Notes under the pieces: model-generated
Databases searched by the model: none
Seen by the model: only the letters and a program-made list of their open reading frames with translations
Told to the model about the DNA's origin: nothing
Shown: piece after piece, positions 4,259-64,000 of the stretch
How the letters are laid out: every line of letters starts with the position of its first letter
Position numbering within the stretch: the first letter of the stretch is position 1
Origin: Sphingomonas arvum
Lineage (GTDB): Bacteria; Pseudomonadota; Alphaproteobacteria; Sphingomonadales; Sphingomonadaceae
DNA length: 64,000 nt
NCBI RefSeq assembly: GCF_026013565.1
Contig: NZ_JAPDOB010000001.1
Coordinates: forward strand, 496,001-560,000
Reading direction: 5' to 3'
Translations under genes and position numbers: made by a program

Positions 4259-5146
4259 ATGCGCGTGGTGGTTACGGGAGCCAAGGGCCAGGTTGCTGCG
4301 TCGCTTGCTGAACTTGCCCCGGAAGTCGGCCACGAGTTGGTCGCCATTGGACGGCCTGAACTGGAGCTTGGCGGCGAGCGCTTGGCGATCGCACTGGCAC
4401 TGGAGCGGGCGCGCCCCGACGTGATCGTGTCCGCGGCCGCCTACACCGCGGTTGACCGGGCGGAGGCGGAACCGGACCTGGCCTTCGCGGTGAATGCGCG
4501 TGGTGCGGGGAGCGTCGCCGCTGCTGCCGCGGCCCTCGGCGTGCCCCTCGTCCACCTCTCGACGGACTATGTGTTCGACGGCCGCAAGCTGGAGCCCTAC
4601 GTCGAGGAGGACCCGGTCGGTCCAACCGGCGTCTACGGGCGATCCAAACTGGAAGGCGAGGAGCTTGTCCGTGCCGCGCACCACGACGTCGCAATTCTCC
4701 GCACCGCGTGGGTGTACAGTCCGTTCGGCGCCAATTTCGTGAGAACCATGCTGAAGGTGGCTGAGAGCCGGGACCAGGTGTCAGTGGTGGCCGACCAGTA
4801 CGGCAACCCGACCAGTGCGCTGGACATCGCCCGCGCCGTCCTGGCCATCGCCGAGCAACTGACAAGGTCGAAGTCGCCGCAGCTGCGAGGGATCTTCCAT
4901 ATGACGGGAAGCGGCGAAGCGAGCTGGGCCGAACTGGCCGACCATGTCTTCGCAGCTTCCGCAGCGCTTGGAGGACCATCGGCCCGCGTCCATCGCATCC
5001 CCACCGCCGATTATCCCACTCCCGCTCGACGCCCCAGCAACTCTCGCCTGAACTGCCAACGCTTGAGCACGGCCTATGGGGTGACCTTGCCTGACTGGCA
5101 TCAGTCAGTATCGGAAGTCGTAAGACGGCTTGTGCAGTCGAATTGA
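4259..5146 (+). CDS. rfbD: dTDP-4-dehydrorhamnose reductase
   Basis: This is the NADPH-dependent last step that yields dTDP-L-rhamnose. The start was set at ATG 4259 ('[12 protein letters not shown]'), eight bases after the rfbB stop, rather than at the longer in-frame extension inside rfbB, because the nucleotide-binding loop belongs at the N terminus. The 295-residue protein has '[11 protein letters not shown]', 'LSTDYVFDG', the Tyr-x3-Lys dyad in 'YGRSKLEGE', and '[18 protein letters not shown]'. The final segment 'RPSNSRL' also matches the family. Identification is secure. Confidence 0.96.
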
Positions 5147-5165
5147 TCAAGAAGGTACTGGAGCA

Positions 5166-6035
5166 ATGAAGGGAATCATTCTCGCGGGCGGAACCGGTTC
5201 GCGACTTTTCCCGATGACTCTCGCCGTCTCCAAGCAGTTGATGCCGGTTTATGACAAGCCGATGATCTACTACCCGCTGACCACGCTGATGCTGGCCGAG
5301 ATCCGCGAGGTGCTGATCATCACCACGCCGCAGGACGCGGCCTCGTTCCAGCATCTGCTCGGAGACGGGTCGCAGTGGGGCATGGAGTTGAGCTATGCCG
5401 TGCAGCCCGAGCCCAGGGGTCTGGCGCAGGCGTTCACGATCGGCGCAGATTTCGTCGGCGGGAACCCGTCCTGCCTTATCCTGGGCGACAACATCTTCTA
5501 CGGCCACGGCCTCTGGGACCTGCTGACCTCGGCTCGCGCCGGTCCGAAGGGGGCAACGGTGTTCGCCTATCAAGTGGCTGATCCGGAACGCTATGGCGTA
5601 GTCGAATTCGACAGCAGCATGCGTGCGCTCAGCATTGAGGAGAAGCCGGTCGTCCCGAAGTCGAAATGGGCCGTCACCGGCCTCTACTTCTACGACGAGC
5701 AGGTCGTCGACATCGCCGCAGACATCAAGCCGTCCGCACGGGGTGAGCTGGAGATTACGGAGGTTAATCGCGCGTACCTCGAGCGGCAGCAGCTGAGCGT
5801 CGAGACCCTGGGGCGCGGCTTTGCCTGGCTCGATACCGGTACCCCCGACAGCCTGATGGAAGCGAGCGAGTTCGTCTCCACCCTGGAACGCCGGCAGGGC
5901 ATGAAGATCGCTTGCCCCGAGGAGATTGCCTGGCGGCAGGGCTTCATCGACGATGCTGGTCTGCAACGGGCTGCGGAGCGCCTCGGCAAGAGCGATTACG
6001 GAACCTACCTGCGTCGCTTGCCGGAACTGAGCTGA
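5166..6035 (+). CDS. rfbA: Glucose-1-phosphate thymidylyltransferase
   Basis: The 289-residue enzyme makes dTDP-glucose from dTTP and glucose-1-phosphate, the entry step of the rhamnose pathway. The N terminus '[18 protein letters not shown]' contains the nucleotidyltransferase loop, followed by '[16 protein letters not shown]', '[11 protein letters not shown]' and 'EEKP', and later '[14 protein letters not shown]'. I chose ATG 5166, preceded by a GGAG ribosome-binding site, over an upstream extension that adds only an unconserved peptide. It closes the rfbCBDA block and precedes the kpsC-like gene by about 30 bases. Confidence 0.97.
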
Positions 6036-12361: not shown

Positions 12362-15300
12362 TTAGAGGTATTGCACGGTGTTGATCGAGCCCGCGCCGAC
12401 CAGGCTGAGGGACGACACATCGTGATAGCCGACGTCGGCGACCATGGTCGTGGAGGTCGCGGGCGCAGTTGCTGTGGTTGCCGTCACGAAGTCGGCTTTG
12501 GTGACCGTCTTGGTGCCGAGCAGCGCCACTGCGAAATCCGCCACGCCGTCACCATTGGAGTCACCATATACAACCGTGGTGAAGGTCTTGGTGTCGAGCT
12601 TAGTGCTGCCATCGAGGTCGATGCCCAGAGCCTTCTCGGCGGAGTTGATGTTGCCGAAGGTCTCCCAGCTGAGAACCTTGGCGGTGCCGAAGTCCAGGCT
12701 GTCGTTGCCGATCTGCTCGAAGTCGAACACGACGTCCACCGCGAGGCCGCCCTTGGCGCCCGACGTCGGGGTGCCGGCACCGAAGACGAAGGTGTCGTTG
12801 CCCCCGTCGCCGTACAGCTTGTCGAACCCGTTGCCGCCGATGATGACGTCGTTGCCGGCGCCACCATGAAGCGTGTTCGACAGGCCGTTGCCTTCGATGC
12901 GGTTGGCGAGCTCGTTGCCGTTGCCCGTCAGCGCGCCGCCGGTGAGGACCAGGTCCTCGATGTTGGTGCCGAGGCTGTAGTTCACCGAGCTCACCACCGT
13001 GTCGCGTCCGGCGTTCAGACCTTCCGTCACCACGTCGCCGGCATCGTCGACGATGTAGCGATCGTTGCCGAGCCCGCCAGCCATGGTGTCGGCACCCACG
13101 CCGCCGTCAAGAATGTTGGCTCCGGCGTTGCCGATCAGGCTGTTGGCGAGGCCGTTACCCGTCCCGTTGAGGTTGGCCGCGCCGGTCAGTTCCAGGTTCT
13201 CGACCTCGGCACTCAAGGTGTAGCTGACGGAGCTCACGACGGTGTCGAGGCCGCCGTTGGCAGCCTCGGTCACCAGATCGCCAGCATTGTCGACGAAGTA
13301 GCGGTCGTTGCCGCCGCCACCAGCCATCGTGTCCGCACCCGCGCCGCCGTCGAGGACGTTGGCGCCCGAATTCCCGATCAAGCTATTGGCGAGATCGTTA
13401 CCCGTGCCGCTGAGGTCCGCCGTTCCGGTCAATTGGAGGTTCTCGACTGCCGCGGTTAGCGTGTAGCTGATCGAGCTCTGGACCATGTCGATGCCCTCGC
13501 CGGCAAGCTCGGTCACCACGTCGCCGGCATTGTCGACCACATAGCGGTCGTCGCCGGCGCCGCCGATCAGAGTGTCGGCACCAGCACCGCCGTCGAGGAC
13601 GTTCGCATTGCCGTTGCCGGTAATCCGGTTGGCAAGCTCGTTGCCTGTGCCGTTTAGGGCGGCTCCGGTCAGTTCGAGGTCTTCGACGTTCGTGCCTAGC
13701 GCGTAGCTGATGGAGCTGGTCACCGTGTCGCGGCCAGCGTCCGCAAGCTCGGTAACCTGGTCGCCGGCGTCGTCGACCACATAGCGATCGTCGCCCGTCC
13801 CACCCACCAAGGTGTCGGCCCCGGCACCGCCGTCCAGCAGGTCGTCACCGGCGCCGCCATCAATCACGTTGGCGCCCGCGTCACCCTTGAGCGTGTCGTT
13901 GAAGGCCGAGCCGGTCAGGTTCTCAAGCTGACTGAGCGTATCGGAGCCCGCGCCCGTGGCCTGCGGCCCAGTCAGGCTCAGATCCACGGTCACGCCGTTC
14001 GCGGCATCGCTGTAGCTGGCGGTGTCGATACCCTCGCCGCCGATCAGCGTGTCGTCGCCGGTGCCGCCACGAAGCAAGTCGTTGCCGCTGCCGCCGTCGA
14101 GCGTGTCGTTGCCCGCCAGGCCTACCAGCACGTCGTTGCCGGCGCCGCCGTTCAGCACGTCGTTGGCGGTGGCGCCCGTGATGGTCTCATCGCCGTCGAA
14201 GCCGGTCAGGTTGAGGCTGCCGATGAAGCCATCGAAGTTGAAGGCCGTGAAGCCACCGGTGTAGCCGTTGCTGATCGTAAAGACGGTCACGAAGCCGTTG
14301 ACCCCGGCCGACCCGTCACGATCGACCTGCACCAGCAGGTCCGTGCCCGATTGGACCAGGCGCAAGTGGCCGCTGGCGAACGCGTTGCTGTTCTGCGCGT
14401 AGCCGGTCAGGCCGAGGTTCAGGAAGGTCGTCATCTCGAACCGGTCGCCCGAGTTGCCGACCTGGAAGTCCGTGACAACGTTGGTGCGAGCAGTCGTGGC
14501 AACGTCGGTCGAGGCCGCCGCCGTGGCGCCCACGCCGAGTTGGATGATGTCGGCTCCCTCACCAAGGGTGATGCGGTAGTTGTTGACGGTGGATGCCCCG
14601 CGCATGCTGATGCTGATGAGGTCATTCCCCGAGCCCGCGTCGATCGTGGCACTGGCAACACCGGTCAGGATGACCCGGTCGTTACCGGCGCCGCCGCTGA
14701 CGGTGACCGTATCGAGGTTGCGGTCGTTGGAGGTGGCACCCGGCGCCAGATAAGTGGCGGTGGACAGGCCGCCGACGTAGGTGGCCAGGGCGGTCGACAA
14801 CGTGCCGCCGCGCAGCTCGATGAGGTCGTCACCGTCGCCGCCGTCCATGGTGACGTTGGTGGCGACGTTGGTCGTGCCGCGGGTGACCAGGATGCTGTCG
14901 TTACCGCCGTAGCCGAACAGGCTGTCTGACTGGCCGGCGGGCCCTGACACGGCATTGTCGATCAGCAGGTTGAAGTCGTCGTTGCCGCGCAGGGTGTCAC
15001 CGAAGTTCGAACCGGTAAGATACTCGATGCCGATCAGCGTGTCGGTGCCTTCGCCGCCAGTATTCTGCGCATTTCCCTCGCCCTGGATGCGGAGGTCTAC
15101 CGTGACGCCCGCCGTCGAGTTGACGTAGGTCGCCGTGTCGAGGCCCTCGCCGCCGATCAGCGTGTCGTTGCCGAGGCCGCCCGATAGGGTGTCATTGCCG
15201 TACCAGCCGTCGAGCACGTCGTCGCCGGCATTGCCGACCAACGTGTCGAGCGTGCCGCCGCCATGGACCACGTCATTGCCCGAACCGCCGCGGAAGATGA

Positions 15301-60587: not shown

Positions 60588-61148
60588 TCAGGCGATGTTG
60601 AGCGTGCCGTTGAGCCTGATCGGGCGCCCGAGATTGTAGTAGTTGGGCGAGGTCTTCATCACCGCCTGGTGGATTTCGGCGAATTGCTCGGGCGTGCCGT
60701 CGCCAGCGATGGTCACCTCGTAGTCGACGCTCTCGTAGCCGGGCGCGACCTGATCGGACAGGCCGAGGAAGCCGCGCAGGTCGAGCGTGCCGCTCGTGCG
60801 GATCTCCAGTCGCTCGAGCTTGATGCCCTTGGTGGCCGCGCCGGCGACATAGCCGACCGTAATGCAGGCATTGAACGCCGCCATCAGCAACTCCTGCGGA
60901 TTCGGCGCCTGGTCGGTGCCGCAAATCTGTGTCGGCTCGTCGGCCTCGATCAGATAATCGCGCGGAATACGCTGCCCGCCGAAGCGGATGTCCTCGACGG
61001 TCGCTTCGCTACGCGTGCCGCCGGTCCAGCGGGTGGTCACGGCGAATGCCAATGCGCCGTTATCCGGGTCCTGCTGAATACGGTCGACGATCTCGCCGAG
61101 CATGCCGAGGTCGATGCCGTTGACCTGGGTGGTGGTGGTGTCGAGCAT
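60588..61148 (-). CDS. OsmC family protein
   Basis: The 186-residue protein fits the OsmC/Ohr superfamily, which reduces organic hydroperoxides through two cysteines. 'GTDQAPNPQELLMAAFNACI' is the classical motif preceding the second cysteine, and an earlier Cys is in 'PTQICGTD'. A C-terminal 'FAEIHQAVMKTSPNYYNLGR' is also family-like. The spacing of the cysteines differs from classical Ohr, so peroxidase activity is inferred. AAAGGA precedes the ATG. It lies 30 bases downstream of the diiron gene. Confidence 0.9.
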   Translation of the reverse strand: MLDTTTTQVNGIDLGMLGEIVDRIQQDPDNGALAFAVTTRWTGGTRSEATVEDIRFGGQRIPRDYLIEADEPTQICGTDQAPNPQELLMAAFNACITVGYVAGAATKGIKLERLEIRTSGTLDLRGFLGLSDQVAPGYESVDYEVTIAGDGTPEQFAEIHQAVMKTSPNYYNLGRPIRLNGTLNIA

Positions 61149-61178: not shown

Positions 61179-62084
61179 TTACGCGAACATCGGGGCTGCT
61201 TCGGCAACCCGCCGAGCAGCGGCGGGGGAGTGCGCCTGGAGCGTCGAGACAAAGCGGTCGTGCACCATTCCCGAGCCGAGATAGGTCCAGCGGGCAGCCT
61301 GGCGCTGCTGGGCGGCCACGGCCTCGCGGTCGGGCACCGCACGGCCAGTCACGGCTTCGAGCGCATCGAGGTTGAACTGGGCCTGCGTGGCGAGCCCCGC
61401 GTCCAGGAACCCGCCGATGGCGAAGAACTGGTCCATCACCCGGCCCCAGACCTCGTCCGAGCGCCCTTCGGCCAGCGCATCCACGATCAGCGTGTCGAGC
61501 TTGGCGTGCTGCGCTTCCTCGATCCAATGGTTGCGCATCAGGCTCTTGAACAGCGGGTCAAGATCCCCGTCGTCGCGGATGGAGCCGAGGTAATGGCCCT
61601 GCGTCATCCACTCGATCATCAGGATGACCAGGGCGACGCTGAGCGGGTCATGGCGCAACACCTCGGCGCCGATCGCCTCCGACGGACCGATCATCTGCGG
61701 CTGCACCGGGAAGCCGCGGACGAACGCTTGGTGAAAGCGCTTGAACAGGTGGATGTGCTTGGCTTCCTCTGACGCGAAGTTGAGCAGGGCGCGGACCCGC
61801 CAGTCGTCCTCCCGCAGGTGCGGACGGGCATGGTCCAGCACAAATGGGACGATGAATTCCTCCACCACGCCGAAGATGCAGAGATATTGGTGGCCGCTGA
61901 TCTGGTTGAGGAGCTTCTGCTCCGCCGGGCTGAGCTGGGTCAGCGCGGCGGTGCGGGCGAGGCTCTCCGGCATGAAGCGGAGCGAGAAGTCGAGCTCCTG
62001 GTCAGGCGCAAGCACCTCGTCCAGTTCCCAGTTCCCGCGCAGCGACGAGGCGAGCGCCTGTTGAAAGGTGAAGTCGTGGTACAT
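61179..62084 (-). CDS. Ferritin-like diiron protein (AurF-like oxygenase)
   Basis: The 301-residue helical protein carries diiron-carboxylate ligands in a four-helix pattern: 'GVVEEFIVPF' (Glu75/76), 'SEEAKHIHLF' (Glu107, His110), 'MIEWMTQGHYL' (Glu158) and 'IEEAQHAKLD' (Glu190, His193). The two ExxH pairs resemble the AurF/CmlI N-oxygenase or related ferritin-like oxygenases. The substrate is unknown. It sits between a 36-residue membrane peptide gene and osmC on the same strand with short gaps, so an operon is likely. Confidence 0.8.
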   Translation of the reverse strand: MYHDFTFQQALASSLRGNWELDEVLAPDQELDFSLRFMPESLARTAALTQLSPAEQKLLNQISGHQYLCIFGVVEEFIVPFVLDHARPHLREDDWRVRALLNFASEEAKHIHLFKRFHQAFVRGFPVQPQMIGPSEAIGAEVLRHDPLSVALVILMIEWMTQGHYLGSIRDDGDLDPLFKSLMRNHWIEEAQHAKLDTLIVDALAEGRSDEVWGRVMDQFFAIGGFLDAGLATQAQFNLDALEAVTGRAVPDREAVAAQQRQAARWTYLGSGMVHDRFVSTLQAHSPAAARRVAEAAPMFA

Positions 62085-62109: not shown

Positions 62110-62220
62110 TCAAAGCAGGAAGGGTGAAACGGCGAGGGCGGCGGTGGTCAGGCCGCTGATGAAGGCGCAGGCGAGGACCAGCAGGGCCCGGCCGCGCAGT
62201 TCGTAGGTCAGTTCGTCCAT
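62110..62220 (-). CDS. 36-residue single-span membrane peptide
   Basis: The frame reads 'MDELTYELRGRALLVLACAF' then 'ISGLTTAALAVSPFLL' and stops. Its ATG at 62220 is preceded on the minus strand by AAGGGG at good spacing. The layout, a charged N terminus and about 22 hydrophobic residues, suggests a small membrane protein. It lies 25 bases before the diiron gene in the same direction, as the first gene of that operon. I know no family for it. Confidence 0.65.
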   Translation of the reverse strand: MDELTYELRGRALLVLACAFISGLTTAALAVSPFLL

Positions 62221-62397
62221 GTCTTGTCCCCTTGGTGGCCAGGTACGGGATCGGCGATCTCGCGAACCCCATGTCCGCAAGTTGTTCGCTGCTGTTCGTC
62301 CGTGGCTGGGGATGATTTACGCCGGCCGATGCGCTACTGATATGACCGGGCAACCGGATGAATTGACCGAAACGCCGGAACCCACGAGGAAACCGTC
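62221..62397. promoter_or_regulatory. Divergent control region with a 10-bp-spaced direct repeat
   Basis: These 177 bases separate the diiron operon from the AraC-hydrolase gene. TGTTCG occurs at 62283-62288 and again at 62293-62298, one helical turn apart, an arrangement compatible with tandem AraC half-sites. I could not assign -35/-10 elements with confidence. Confidence 0.4.
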
Positions 62398-64000
62398 ATG
62401 GATGTCCTCAGCGACATTCTGTCCTCACTGCACTTGACCGGCGGGGTGATCCTCGAAGGGGAGGCGCACGGCGACTGGTGCGTTTACTCCCAGCTGAAAC
62501 CGGAAGACATCGCCGCATTGTTTCCGAACGGCGGTCCGGTCATCGCCTATCACTACGTCAAGCAGGGCCGCTTGTTCGCGCAGGTAGAAGGGCAGCCGCC
62601 GGTGAAGGCGGACGCGGGCTCCATCCTGCTGTTCCCGCGCAACGTCCGGCACCGGCTGTTCACCAGTGATGCGCCGAAGCCAATCGACTCGCACGACTTC
62701 ATCCGGGGCGCGACCGAACGTGGGCTGGCCCGCTTCACGATCGACGGGAGTGGCGACGCGGTGGAGTTCTATTGCGGCTTCCTTGGCGTAGAGGCGGGCG
62801 AGCACCCGCTGCTGGAATGCCTGCCGGCCATGCTGAAGGTGGAGGACATCAGCGAGGTGCGGGAGCGCTGGCTGGAGCAGAACCTGGCTTTTCTGACGAC
62901 CGGGCAGCCGAGCGACGAGGTCGTGACCCGTATTGCCGAGCTGCTGTTCGCGGAAGCCGTGCGGGCCTATGTCGACGACCTGCCAGAGGGAGACAACGGC
63001 TGGCTCGACGGGCTGCGTGACCCGGCGGTCGCCCGCGCGCTGTCGATCATCCATGCCCGCTTCGCCGACGACCTCGACATCGAGTTGCTGGCGCGGGAGG
63101 CGGGCGTGTCGCGAACCGTGCTTGGCGAGCGCTTCTCGGCGCTGCTGGGCGAATCGCCCATGCGTTACTGCGCCAAGTGGCGGATGCGGCAGGCGGCAAA
63201 CCTGCTGCGCGAGGGCAAGGAAAATACCGCCAACATCGCCTATCGCGTCGGCTTCAACTCGGAAGCGGCGTTCAACCGGGCGTTCAAGCGCGAGTTCGGC
63301 CTCCCGCCCGCGGCTTGGAAACGGCTGGGGCAGCGTGAAGCGGATGCGCACGCCGGGCCGCAGCCCGCTCCGATCCGCTTCGCCCACTCGGCCGACGGCA
63401 CGCGGATCGCGTGGACTGTGTCGGGCCAGGGCGACCCGCTGCTGATGCCGGGCGTCTGGTTCCACCAGATCGCGGAGGACGGCAACAGTCCGTTGTGGGG
63501 CCACTGGCTGACGCTGGCGACGCACGGGCACCGGGCTTATCGGGCGGACACCCGCGGCTGCGGCCAGTCGGAGTTGCACCCGGCCCGCTGGACCTTCGAC
63601 GCCGTAGTCCAAGATCTGGAGTGCCTGGCGTCTCAGGCGGGAGACGGGCCGGTCGACCTTCTGACTTTCTCCAACAGTGCGGCCATCGCACTCGCTTATG
63701 CGGCGCGGCATCCGGAGCGGGTTAAGCGAATGGTGCTGGTAGCAGGCTACGCGCAGGGCGTGCTGGCGCGCGGCGATCCGAGTGAGATCGGTGTCCGCAC
63801 GGCGGCGGTGGAGATGGGCCGGCAGATGCTGGACCGCGATCCGCAGGCGTTTGGCCGGATGATCGGCGCCCTGGTCGTCCCGCAGGCCAGCGACGAGCTG
63901 CAAGAGTGGTGCTCGGCCCGCTTCTGCCACCCGGTGTTCCTCAATCCGGACGCGCAGCGCTGCTACGGCGAGATCGACGTGCTGGACGTGCTGCCTACCA
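62398..64000 (+). CDS. AraC-family regulator fused to alpha/beta-hydrolase domain (partial at 3' end)
   Basis: The frame from ATG 62398 (AGGA upstream) stays open to the window end, giving at least 534 residues. Residues ~1-120 look like a cupin-type sensor ('VIAYHYVKQGRLFAQVEGQP', 'LLFPRNVRHRLF'). Residues ~207-305 are a double-HTH AraC domain ('IELLAREAGVSRTVLGERF', 'ANIAYRVGFNSEAAFNRAFK'). From ~325 an alpha/beta-hydrolase fold follows ('GDPLLMPGVW', 'ADTRGCGQSE', 'IALAYAARHPERVKRMVLVA'). The nucleophile elbow reads 'TFSNSA' (Ser425) in place of GxSxG. It is divergent from the diiron operon and likely regulates it. The C-terminal His is beyond the window. Confidence 0.88.
   Translation, partial: MDVLSDILSSLHLTGGVILEGEAHGDWCVYSQLKPEDIAALFPNGGPVIAYHYVKQGRLFAQVEGQPPVKADAGSILLFPRNVRHRLFTSDAPKPIDSHDFIRGATERGLARFTIDGSGDAVEFYCGFLGVEAGEHPLLECLPAMLKVEDISEVRERWLEQNLAFLTTGQPSDEVVTRIAELLFAEAVRAYVDDLPEGDNGWLDGLRDPAVARALSIIHARFADDLDIELLAREAGVSRTVLGERFSALLGESPMRYCAKWRMRQAANLLREGKENTANIAYRVGFNSEAAFNRAFKREFGLPPAAWKRLGQREADAHAGPQPAPIRFAHSADGTRIAWTVSGQGDPLLMPGVWFHQIAEDGNSPLWGHWLTLATHGHRAYRADTRGCGQSELHPARWTFDAVVQDLECLASQAGDGPVDLLTFSNSAAIALAYAARHPERVKRMVLVAGYAQGVLARGDPSEIGVRTAAVEMGRQMLDRDPQAFGRMIGALVVPQASDELQEWCSARFCHPVFLNPDAQRCYGEIDVLDVLPT

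What the first reader, a model, noticed from the sequence alone, without database searches (positions are those of the whole stretch)
62398..64000. AraC-type regulator fused to an alpha/beta-hydrolase domain
The sequence shows, in one open frame, a cupin-like sensor, a double-HTH AraC domain and an alpha/beta-hydrolase fold. AraC proteins normally sense ligands with a non-enzymatic domain. A hydrolase module after the HTH could bind or cleave the inducer, giving a regulator that senses and consumes its own signal. I know of no characterised example, but cannot rule one out.
Basis: partly seen in the sequence, partly recalled or inferred. Interest (0 to 1): 0.75.

Follow-up and report, generated by a model that had tools for sequence, protein, structure and literature searches.

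The report
Gene switch with hydrolase-type sensor
A bacterial gene switch carries, joined to its DNA-binding part, an enzyme-like domain that probably recognises, and may also break down, the chemical signal it responds to; the design is common in sequence databases, but we found no studied example.

Summary
The fusion is real. Beyond the window edge the frame ends normally: one 596-aa protein with an RclR-like cupin, an AraC double HTH and a complete alpha/beta hydrolase (ABH) with a predicted Ser425-Asp547-His575 triad. It is not a one-off: sphingomonad cupin-AraC regulators end in nothing, one ABH, two ABHs, a LysR substrate-binding domain, or ABH plus LysR domain. Related ABHs sit on SARP/BTAD regulators, winged-helix regulators and nucleotide cyclases. 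Exchange with a dedicated ligand-binding domain suggests that the ABH is the effector sensor. The triad is complete in 32 of 32 single-ABH cupin-AraC database proteins and in 162 of 163 first ABHs of tandem proteins, but in only 106 of 163 second ABHs, so one reactive site seems to be needed. The gene diverges from a small membrane ORF, an AurF-type diiron protein and an OsmC protein, across a conserved 21-bp direct-repeat operator found once in this genome. Best reading: a one-component regulator with a hydrolase-type receptor. Ligand and hydrolysis are unproven. New variant of a known kind.

The parts
62398..64000 (+). Regulator gene: cupin - AraC double HTH - alpha/beta hydrolase; runs on to 64188 in the genome (596 aa)
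62401..62976 (+). Cupin_6 sensor domain (residues 2-193); Cys126, His52 and His85 align with RclR Cys89, His42 and His75; Cys28 also conserved
63088..63324 (+). AraC-type double HTH (HTH_18, residues 231-309)
   Evidence: model
63376..64000 (+). alpha/beta-hydrolase domain (residues 327-596; goes on to 64185 in the genome); most like the second ABH of tandem relatives P0006 and P0007
63670..63672 (+). Ser425, predicted nucleophile (elbow TFSNS); Asp547 and His575 lie beyond the window end
62342..62377 (.). Conserved operator-like element: direct repeat, period 21 bp (ATGACCG... / TTGACCGAAACGCCG...), ending 20 bp before the regulator start codon
   Evidence: binding not tested
62110..62220 (-). 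Small hydrophobic ORF, 36 aa, first ORF on the divergent side; a hydrophobic ORF of 34-40 aa at the same place in 14 of 15 AurF-linked intergenic regions
61179..62084 (-). AurF-type diiron protein, 301 aa; E75, E107, H110, E158, H186, E190 and H193 in 27 of 27 proteins aligned
60588..61148 (-). OsmC-family protein, 186 aa; Cys95 in 19 of 19 proteins aligned, its only other Cys (76) not conserved

Best explanation
The protein is a one-component transcription regulator whose C-terminal alpha/beta hydrolase is the effector-sensing module. Its AraC HTH pair binds the 21-bp direct repeat at 62342-62377 and controls its own gene and the divergent unit small-membrane-ORF - AurF-type diiron protein - OsmC. 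The cupin, with RclR-like Cys/His positions, gives a second, probably redox or electrophile, input. A small ester, lactone or similar acyl compound linked to the diiron/OsmC pathway is proposed to bind in the ABH pocket next to Ser425, change how the HTH holds DNA, and be slowly turned over so that the receptor resets, as in plant D14-type receptors. SHOWN by sequence: domain layout, complete triad, divergent gene order, conserved repeat element, exchange of the C-terminal module among relatives. INFERRED: that the element is the operator, that the ABH senses, that it turns the ligand over, the direction of regulation, the ligand class, the role of the cupin.
For: (1) Module exchange: the 120 listed relatives of the G036 regulator (a capped list) are 42 cupin-AraC-LysR_substrate, 31 cupin-AraC, 31 cupin-AraC-ABH, 12 cupin-AraC-ABH-ABH, 3 cupin-AraC-ABH-LysR_substrate and 1 AraC-LysR_substrate. 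LysR_substrate is a ligand-binding domain. (2) A related ABH sits on SARP/BTAD-type regulators beside AurF-OsmC in five genomes (G014, G086, G064, G065, G098; the G014 and G098 N-termini are homologous to the BTAD-bearing one of G048), and one AraC protein (P0047) has a second ABH 86% identical to the G014 one. (3) Of 12 loci given from a 289-genome class sample I scanned 10; all 10 carry an output domain: 3 BTAD, 4 cyclase, 3 winged helix. (4) Triad complete where a protein has one ABH: cupin-AraC 32 of 32 database proteins and 7 of 7 genome loci (these may overlap), cupin-less AraC 3 of 3, ABH-LysR 3 of 3, BTAD type 9 of 9, cyclase 6 of 6, winged helix 2 of 3 with one Glu for Asp. (5) Of 27 AurF loci at 53% identity or more, 19 have an ABH-bearing regulator alongside, 1 the LysR variant, 7 something else or nothing recognised. 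(6) In the operator-based sample, which does not depend on AurF, cupin-AraC genes with a C-terminal module have AurF in 14 of 14 and those without in 0 of 4. (7) Operator-like element: 20 sites in 19 of 71 genus genomes, 19 of the 20 just upstream of an AraC-type regulator; reversed-pattern control 0 in 71; self-identity 0.60 at offset 21 against 0.36 or less at other offsets from 8 to 26.
Confidence: 0.55

Rival explanations
1. Bifunctional pathway enzyme: the ABH is a working hydrolase of the AurF/OsmC pathway, joined to the regulator for co-expression or channelling; the effector is sensed by the cupin alone.
For: Complete triad and close fold match to esterases and perhydrolase-type enzymes; best curated ABH match is to 3-oxoadipate enol-lactonase models, far below cut-off; the cupin has conserved RclR-like Cys/His; cupin-AraC without ABH also stands beside OsmC.
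Against: The ABH is replaced by a LysR substrate-binding domain in many relatives and related ABHs occur on cyclases and other regulator types, which suits a sensor better than a pathway enzyme; second ABHs lose the nucleophile while Asp and His stay.
Confidence: 0.27
2. The ABH is a structural or dimerisation element, its triad a leftover.
For: Second ABHs tolerate loss of the serine; copy number varies among close relatives.
Against: Triad complete in 32 of 32 single-ABH cupin-AraC database proteins and 162 of 163 first ABHs; a bare scaffold would not be expected to hold it.
Confidence: 0.08
3. The cupin is the only working sensor, and the ABH lowers the effector concentration (signal quenching), so the protein both senses and consumes the signal, but with the two jobs in different domains.
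For: Both domains keep their key residues.
Against: Cupin-less AraC-ABH regulators exist with a similar operator-like element (G015; G020 and G026 read by eye), so the ABH can serve without the cupin.
Confidence: 0.08

Closest known systems
RclR (E. coli, AraC family, cupin sensor, responds to hypochlorous acid)
   Same: Cupin plus AraC HTH; Cys89, His42 and His75 equivalents at Cys126, His52 and His85
   Different: 25% identity; RclR Cys21 not aligned to a Cys (Cys28 is near by); RclR has no ABH; different neighbours; NCBIfam score 55 against cut-off 400
Rv1900c/LipJ type cyclase-ABH proteins
   Same: Related ABH joined to a signalling output (LipJ model matches 326-574 of P0001, 4e-13); cyclase-ABH proteins found in G045, G051 and class-wide
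   Different: Output is a nucleotide cyclase, not a DNA-binding domain; score 49 against cut-off 800
D14/DAD2/KAI2 plant receptors and bacterial RsbQ
   Different: Stand-alone proteins acting on partner proteins, not fused to a DNA-binding domain; 14-19% identity
AraC/XylS regulators in general
   Same: Double HTH and 21-bp direct-repeat element
   Different: Sensor normally N-terminal and non-enzymatic (recalled); here an extra C-terminal ABH

Membership tests
AraC/XylS transcription regulators | Double HTH domain (HTH_18) | tested here: met
   Pfam HTH_18 5e-21; helices in model
AraC/XylS transcription regulators | Two direct-repeat half-sites about 21 bp apart next to the gene (recalled for araI1-I2) | tested here: met
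   as a sequence feature only, binding not tested
AraC/XylS transcription regulators | Ligand-dependent control of transcription | not testable with these tools
   needs bench work
alpha/beta hydrolase superfamily | Canonical fold with nucleophile elbow | tested here: met
alpha/beta hydrolase superfamily | Ser-Asp-His triad | tested here: met
   S425, D547, H575 by alignment
alpha/beta hydrolase superfamily | Hydrolytic activity | not testable with these tools
RclR | Redox pair Cys21/Cys89 (PMC7464077, passages) | tested here: inconclusive
   Cys89 = Cys126 in 235 of 237; Cys21 not aligned, Cys28 in 220 of 237
RclR | NCBIfam equivalog cut-off NF040475 | tested here: not met
   55 bits against 400
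LipJ/Rv1900c cyclase-hydrolase | Class III cyclase domain with ABH | tested here: not met
   no cyclase domain in P0001; 49 bits against 800
D14/KAI2/RsbQ hydrolase receptors | ABH used as signal receptor, serine needed | not testable with these tools
   fold and triad agree; function untested

The most novel reading that the evidence does not exclude
These regulators are bacterial one-component counterparts of plant D14/KAI2 receptors: an alpha/beta hydrolase joined directly to a DNA-binding domain that reacts with its ligand through Ser425 and destroys it as part of signalling, in tandem proteins with a second, partly serine-less ABH as a plain binding partner. The module is plugged onto AraC, SARP, winged-helix and cyclase outputs and can be exchanged for a LysR ligand-binding domain.
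Probability: 0.3. Interest if true: 0.82.

Novelty: new variant of a known kind. Interest (0 to 1): 0.56.

Why it matters
If right, it gives a widespread bacterial class of transcription factors in which an enzyme fold is the sensor, with a natural series among close relatives (no module, one ABH, two ABHs, LysR domain, ABH plus LysR) in which 'receptor, enzyme or both' can be tested by swapping modules over one operator. It would also point to an unknown acyl or lactone metabolite tied to AurF-type diiron and OsmC proteins.

Tried and rejected
Rejected: artefact of the window edge or a frameshift. Rejected: a one-off fusion. Rejected: strict ABH-AurF coupling. It holds for the cupin-AraC regulators looked at in and near the genus (15 of 15 with a C-terminal module beside AurF, 0 of 5 without, counting G375 and the distant G002; three cupin-less regulators left out), but fails for those three cupin-less regulators, for seven AurF loci with another or no recognised regulator and for two distant AurF loci. 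The formal test on the HTH tree had only 1-2 usable pairs and decides nothing. A chimaeric join between first-type and second-type ABH in the window protein was looked for; identities by block are ambiguous over the first 100 residues, so it is not claimed. A solved relative of the AurF-type protein was sought by sequence and by profile without a convincing hit. Further targets: one operator-like site in this genome; one site in G078 stands before an ORF that looks like GalE (recalled from its sequence, not tested). The tree of ABH domains was a quick one of 81 thinned domains with a midpoint root and a long-branch warning; single-ABH proteins fall in several places, the window, G062 and G375 with second-type ABHs. 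A first triad tally had lumped a few proteins without a seen AraC part under AraC; it was recounted by architecture, whose numbers are used. E. coli RclR was fetched as a yardstick. Papers: only the open-access library was searched (10 searches); subscription journals were not seen. Read only as passages found by terms: PMC3466318, PMC2447327 (one passage, in its references), PMC1183210, PMC7464077, PMC3531792, PMC4886424; the rest only as search listings.

Full report

A COMMON, SHUFFLED FAMILY. A protein search gave 843 relatives at E 1e-3 or better among 8000 scored candidates; of the 120 listed, 119 are cupin-AraC-ABH-ABH and one is the window protein, with a single ABH. In a quick tree of 81 ABH domains the window's ABH groups with the second ABH of P0006 (Sphingomonas arenae) and P0007 (support 100), not with first ABHs, so the window protein is probably a one-ABH derivative of a two-ABH ancestor (inference; the tree carries a long-branch warning). 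A second search, with the regulator of genome G036, found 1489 relatives among 8000 scored candidates and listed 120: 42 cupin-AraC-LysR_substrate, 31 cupin-AraC, 31 cupin-AraC-ABH, 12 cupin-AraC-ABH-ABH, 3 cupin-AraC-ABH-LysR_substrate, 1 AraC-LysR_substrate; some rows may be cut at contig ends. The window's genus also has cupin-less AraC-ABH proteins (G015, G020, G026). Outside AraC a related ABH stands on SARP/BTAD-type regulators and on nucleotide cyclases. In a class-wide sample searched with the cupin-less AraC-ABH protein of G015, 28 of 289 genomes, the window's included, had a match at 1e-30; of the 12 loci handed out I scanned 10, and these carried BTAD (3), cyclase (4) or winged-helix (3) domains. 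One AraC protein (P0047) has a second ABH 86% identical to the SARP-borne ABH of G014. These are signs of an input module that moves between outputs.

WHY A SENSOR, AND WHY A REACTIVE ONE. LysR_substrate is a ligand-binding domain, and in many relatives it takes the place of the ABH. At the same time the triad is held: single ABH on cupin-AraC 32 of 32 database proteins and 7 of 7 genome loci (possible overlap), first ABH of tandem cupin-AraC proteins 162 of 163, ABH-LysR 3 of 3, cupin-less AraC 3 of 3, BTAD type 9 of 9, cyclase 6 of 6, winged helix 2 of 3 (the third has Glu for Asp). Second ABHs keep Asp and His in 163 of 163 but Ser in 106 of 163, with Ala 40, Thr 8, Gly 7, Cys 2. Of 212 HTH-bearing ABH proteins tallied, all have at least one Ser nucleophile and 211 at least one complete triad; in P0009, whose first ABH lacks Ser, the second has it. 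These are the best-listed hits of three capped searches plus genome loci, not a random sample. Plant DAD2 offers the model: a hydrolase receptor with slow turnover, not functional as S96A (PMC3531792, passages). This step is by analogy.

THE LOCUS. Facing the regulator are a 36-aa hydrophobic ORF, an AurF-type diiron protein and an OsmC protein. I examined 27 AurF loci at 53% identity or more (21 from 71 genus genomes, 6 more from a 396-genome order sample; a contig-end fragment in G085 and hits of 46% and lower set aside): 14 face a cupin-AraC-ABH regulator (8 with one ABH, 6 with two; two of the latter, G010 and G076, have reading-frame breaks), 5 a SARP-type ABH regulator, 1 the LysR variant, 7 another or no recognised regulator: LuxR-type with AAA domain in G071, winged-helix in a second G014 locus, Crp-like in G045 and, by near-identical sequence, G051; none recognised in G048, G289 and a second G078 locus. 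OsmC is next to AurF in 24 of 27. A hydrophobic small ORF occurs in 14 of 15 intergenic regions between AurF and cupin-AraC-type regulators (not in G036) and in 2 of 3 such regions without AurF. E75, E107, H110, E158, E190, H193 and H186, which fit a diiron site, are in 27 of 27 AurF-type proteins aligned, three of them distant; that H186 matches an extra His of AurF is recalled. Cupin-AraC regulators without a C-terminal module (G014, G007, G086, G091 and the distant G002) stand beside OsmC without AurF, 5 of 5. In G014 and G086 such a locus coexists with a SARP-ABH regulator beside AurF-OsmC. Taking only the cupin-AraC genes found through the operator, a sample not chosen by AurF, AurF is there in 14 of 14 with a C-terminal module and 0 of 4 without.

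THE OPERATOR-LIKE ELEMENT. Fifteen intergenic regions share a nearly invariant block just before the regulator. It is a direct repeat with period 21 bp, TGACCG-N4-GCCGGA twice in its commonest form: self-identity 0.60 at offset 21 and 0.36 or less at other offsets from 8 to 26, over 19 sites. In the window alone the repeat is 11 of 17 and would not stand out without the relatives. With two mismatches allowed it is found 20 times in 19 of 71 genus genomes and never with the reversed control; 19 of 20 sites precede an AraC-type regulator (with gene places). In the window genome there is one site, so the regulator looks local. It is kept before ABH-less and cupin-less regulators. In G014 and G086 it lies at the AraC-OsmC locus and not at the SARP-ABH-AurF locus, and G064 and G065, with SARP-ABH-AurF, have no match: it goes with the AraC HTH, not with the ABH.

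THE CUPIN. RclR Cys89, His42 and His75 correspond to Cys126 (235 of 237), His52 (231 of 237) and His85 (233 of 237); Cys28 is in 220 of 237 but is not aligned with RclR Cys21. RclR is activated by oxidation of Cys21 and Cys89 (PMC7464077, passages). With an OsmC protein as a likely target, an oxidant or electrophile input is plausible (inference). The family is not RclR: 25% identity and far below the curated cut-off.

AGAINST A SIMPLE STORY. The three cupin-less AraC-ABH genes face a PEMT/ICMT-like membrane protein (53-60% identical among the three loci; Pfam matches just below the curated cut-off), not AurF. Two distant AurF genes face cupin-AraC without ABH. One AurF-OsmC pair in G014 faces a winged-helix regulator without ABH. 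So ABH and AurF travel together often, not always, and the tree-based test had no power.

KNOWN OR NEW. Databases hold the architecture under enzyme names. Cyclase plus ABH is in print (PMC4886424, passages; LipJ model). In the open-access searches I saw no characterised AraC-ABH or other DNA-binding-ABH regulator; papers behind subscriptions were not seen. I file it as a new variant of a known kind: a one-component regulator with an enzyme-type sensor.

Noticed in passing
window 62110-62220 (-): 36-aa hydrophobic ORF with a ribosome-binding-like sequence; hydrophobic ORFs of 34-40 aa stand at the same place in most related loci looked at. Probably an unannotated small membrane protein of the operon.
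   Followed up: partly
L032:7506-9191 (-): Cupin-AraC regulator with a LysR substrate-binding domain at the ABH position; 42 such rows among 120 listed relatives, and three with ABH and LysR domain together (P0163, P0165, P0166).
   Followed up: yes
L034, L035, L038: Cupin-less AraC-ABH regulators, all three facing a PEMT/ICMT-like integral membrane protein (possible methyltransferase), with a similar operator-like element between.
   Followed up: partly
L098:7125-7796 with L042:7537-9138; L099:5629-6303 with L041:7852-9297: In G045 and G051 the AurF-OsmC pair has a Crp-like cNMP-binding regulator next to it, while the same genomes carry a cyclase-ABH fusion elsewhere: the ABH signal might reach AurF through a cyclic nucleotide. 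In L099 a further cyclase-like ORF (4572-5618, by eye) lies alongside.
   Followed up: partly
related intergenic regions (e.g. G010, G094, G062), middle part: A second conserved element, an inverted repeat like GGAAGC-N4-GCTTCC, between small ORF and operator in several relatives (by eye); not clear in the window.
   Followed up: no
L002:8229-12791 (-) and 13113-14984 (+): Downstream of the regulator: two GH5 cellulase-type proteins with RTX repeats, the larger (1520 aa) also with Calx-beta domains.
   Followed up: partly
L037 (G010) and L075 (G076): Cupin-AraC-ABH-ABH regulator genes with reading-frame breaks in these two genomes; in G076 also in the AurF gene. Assembly error or decay not settled.
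   Followed up: no
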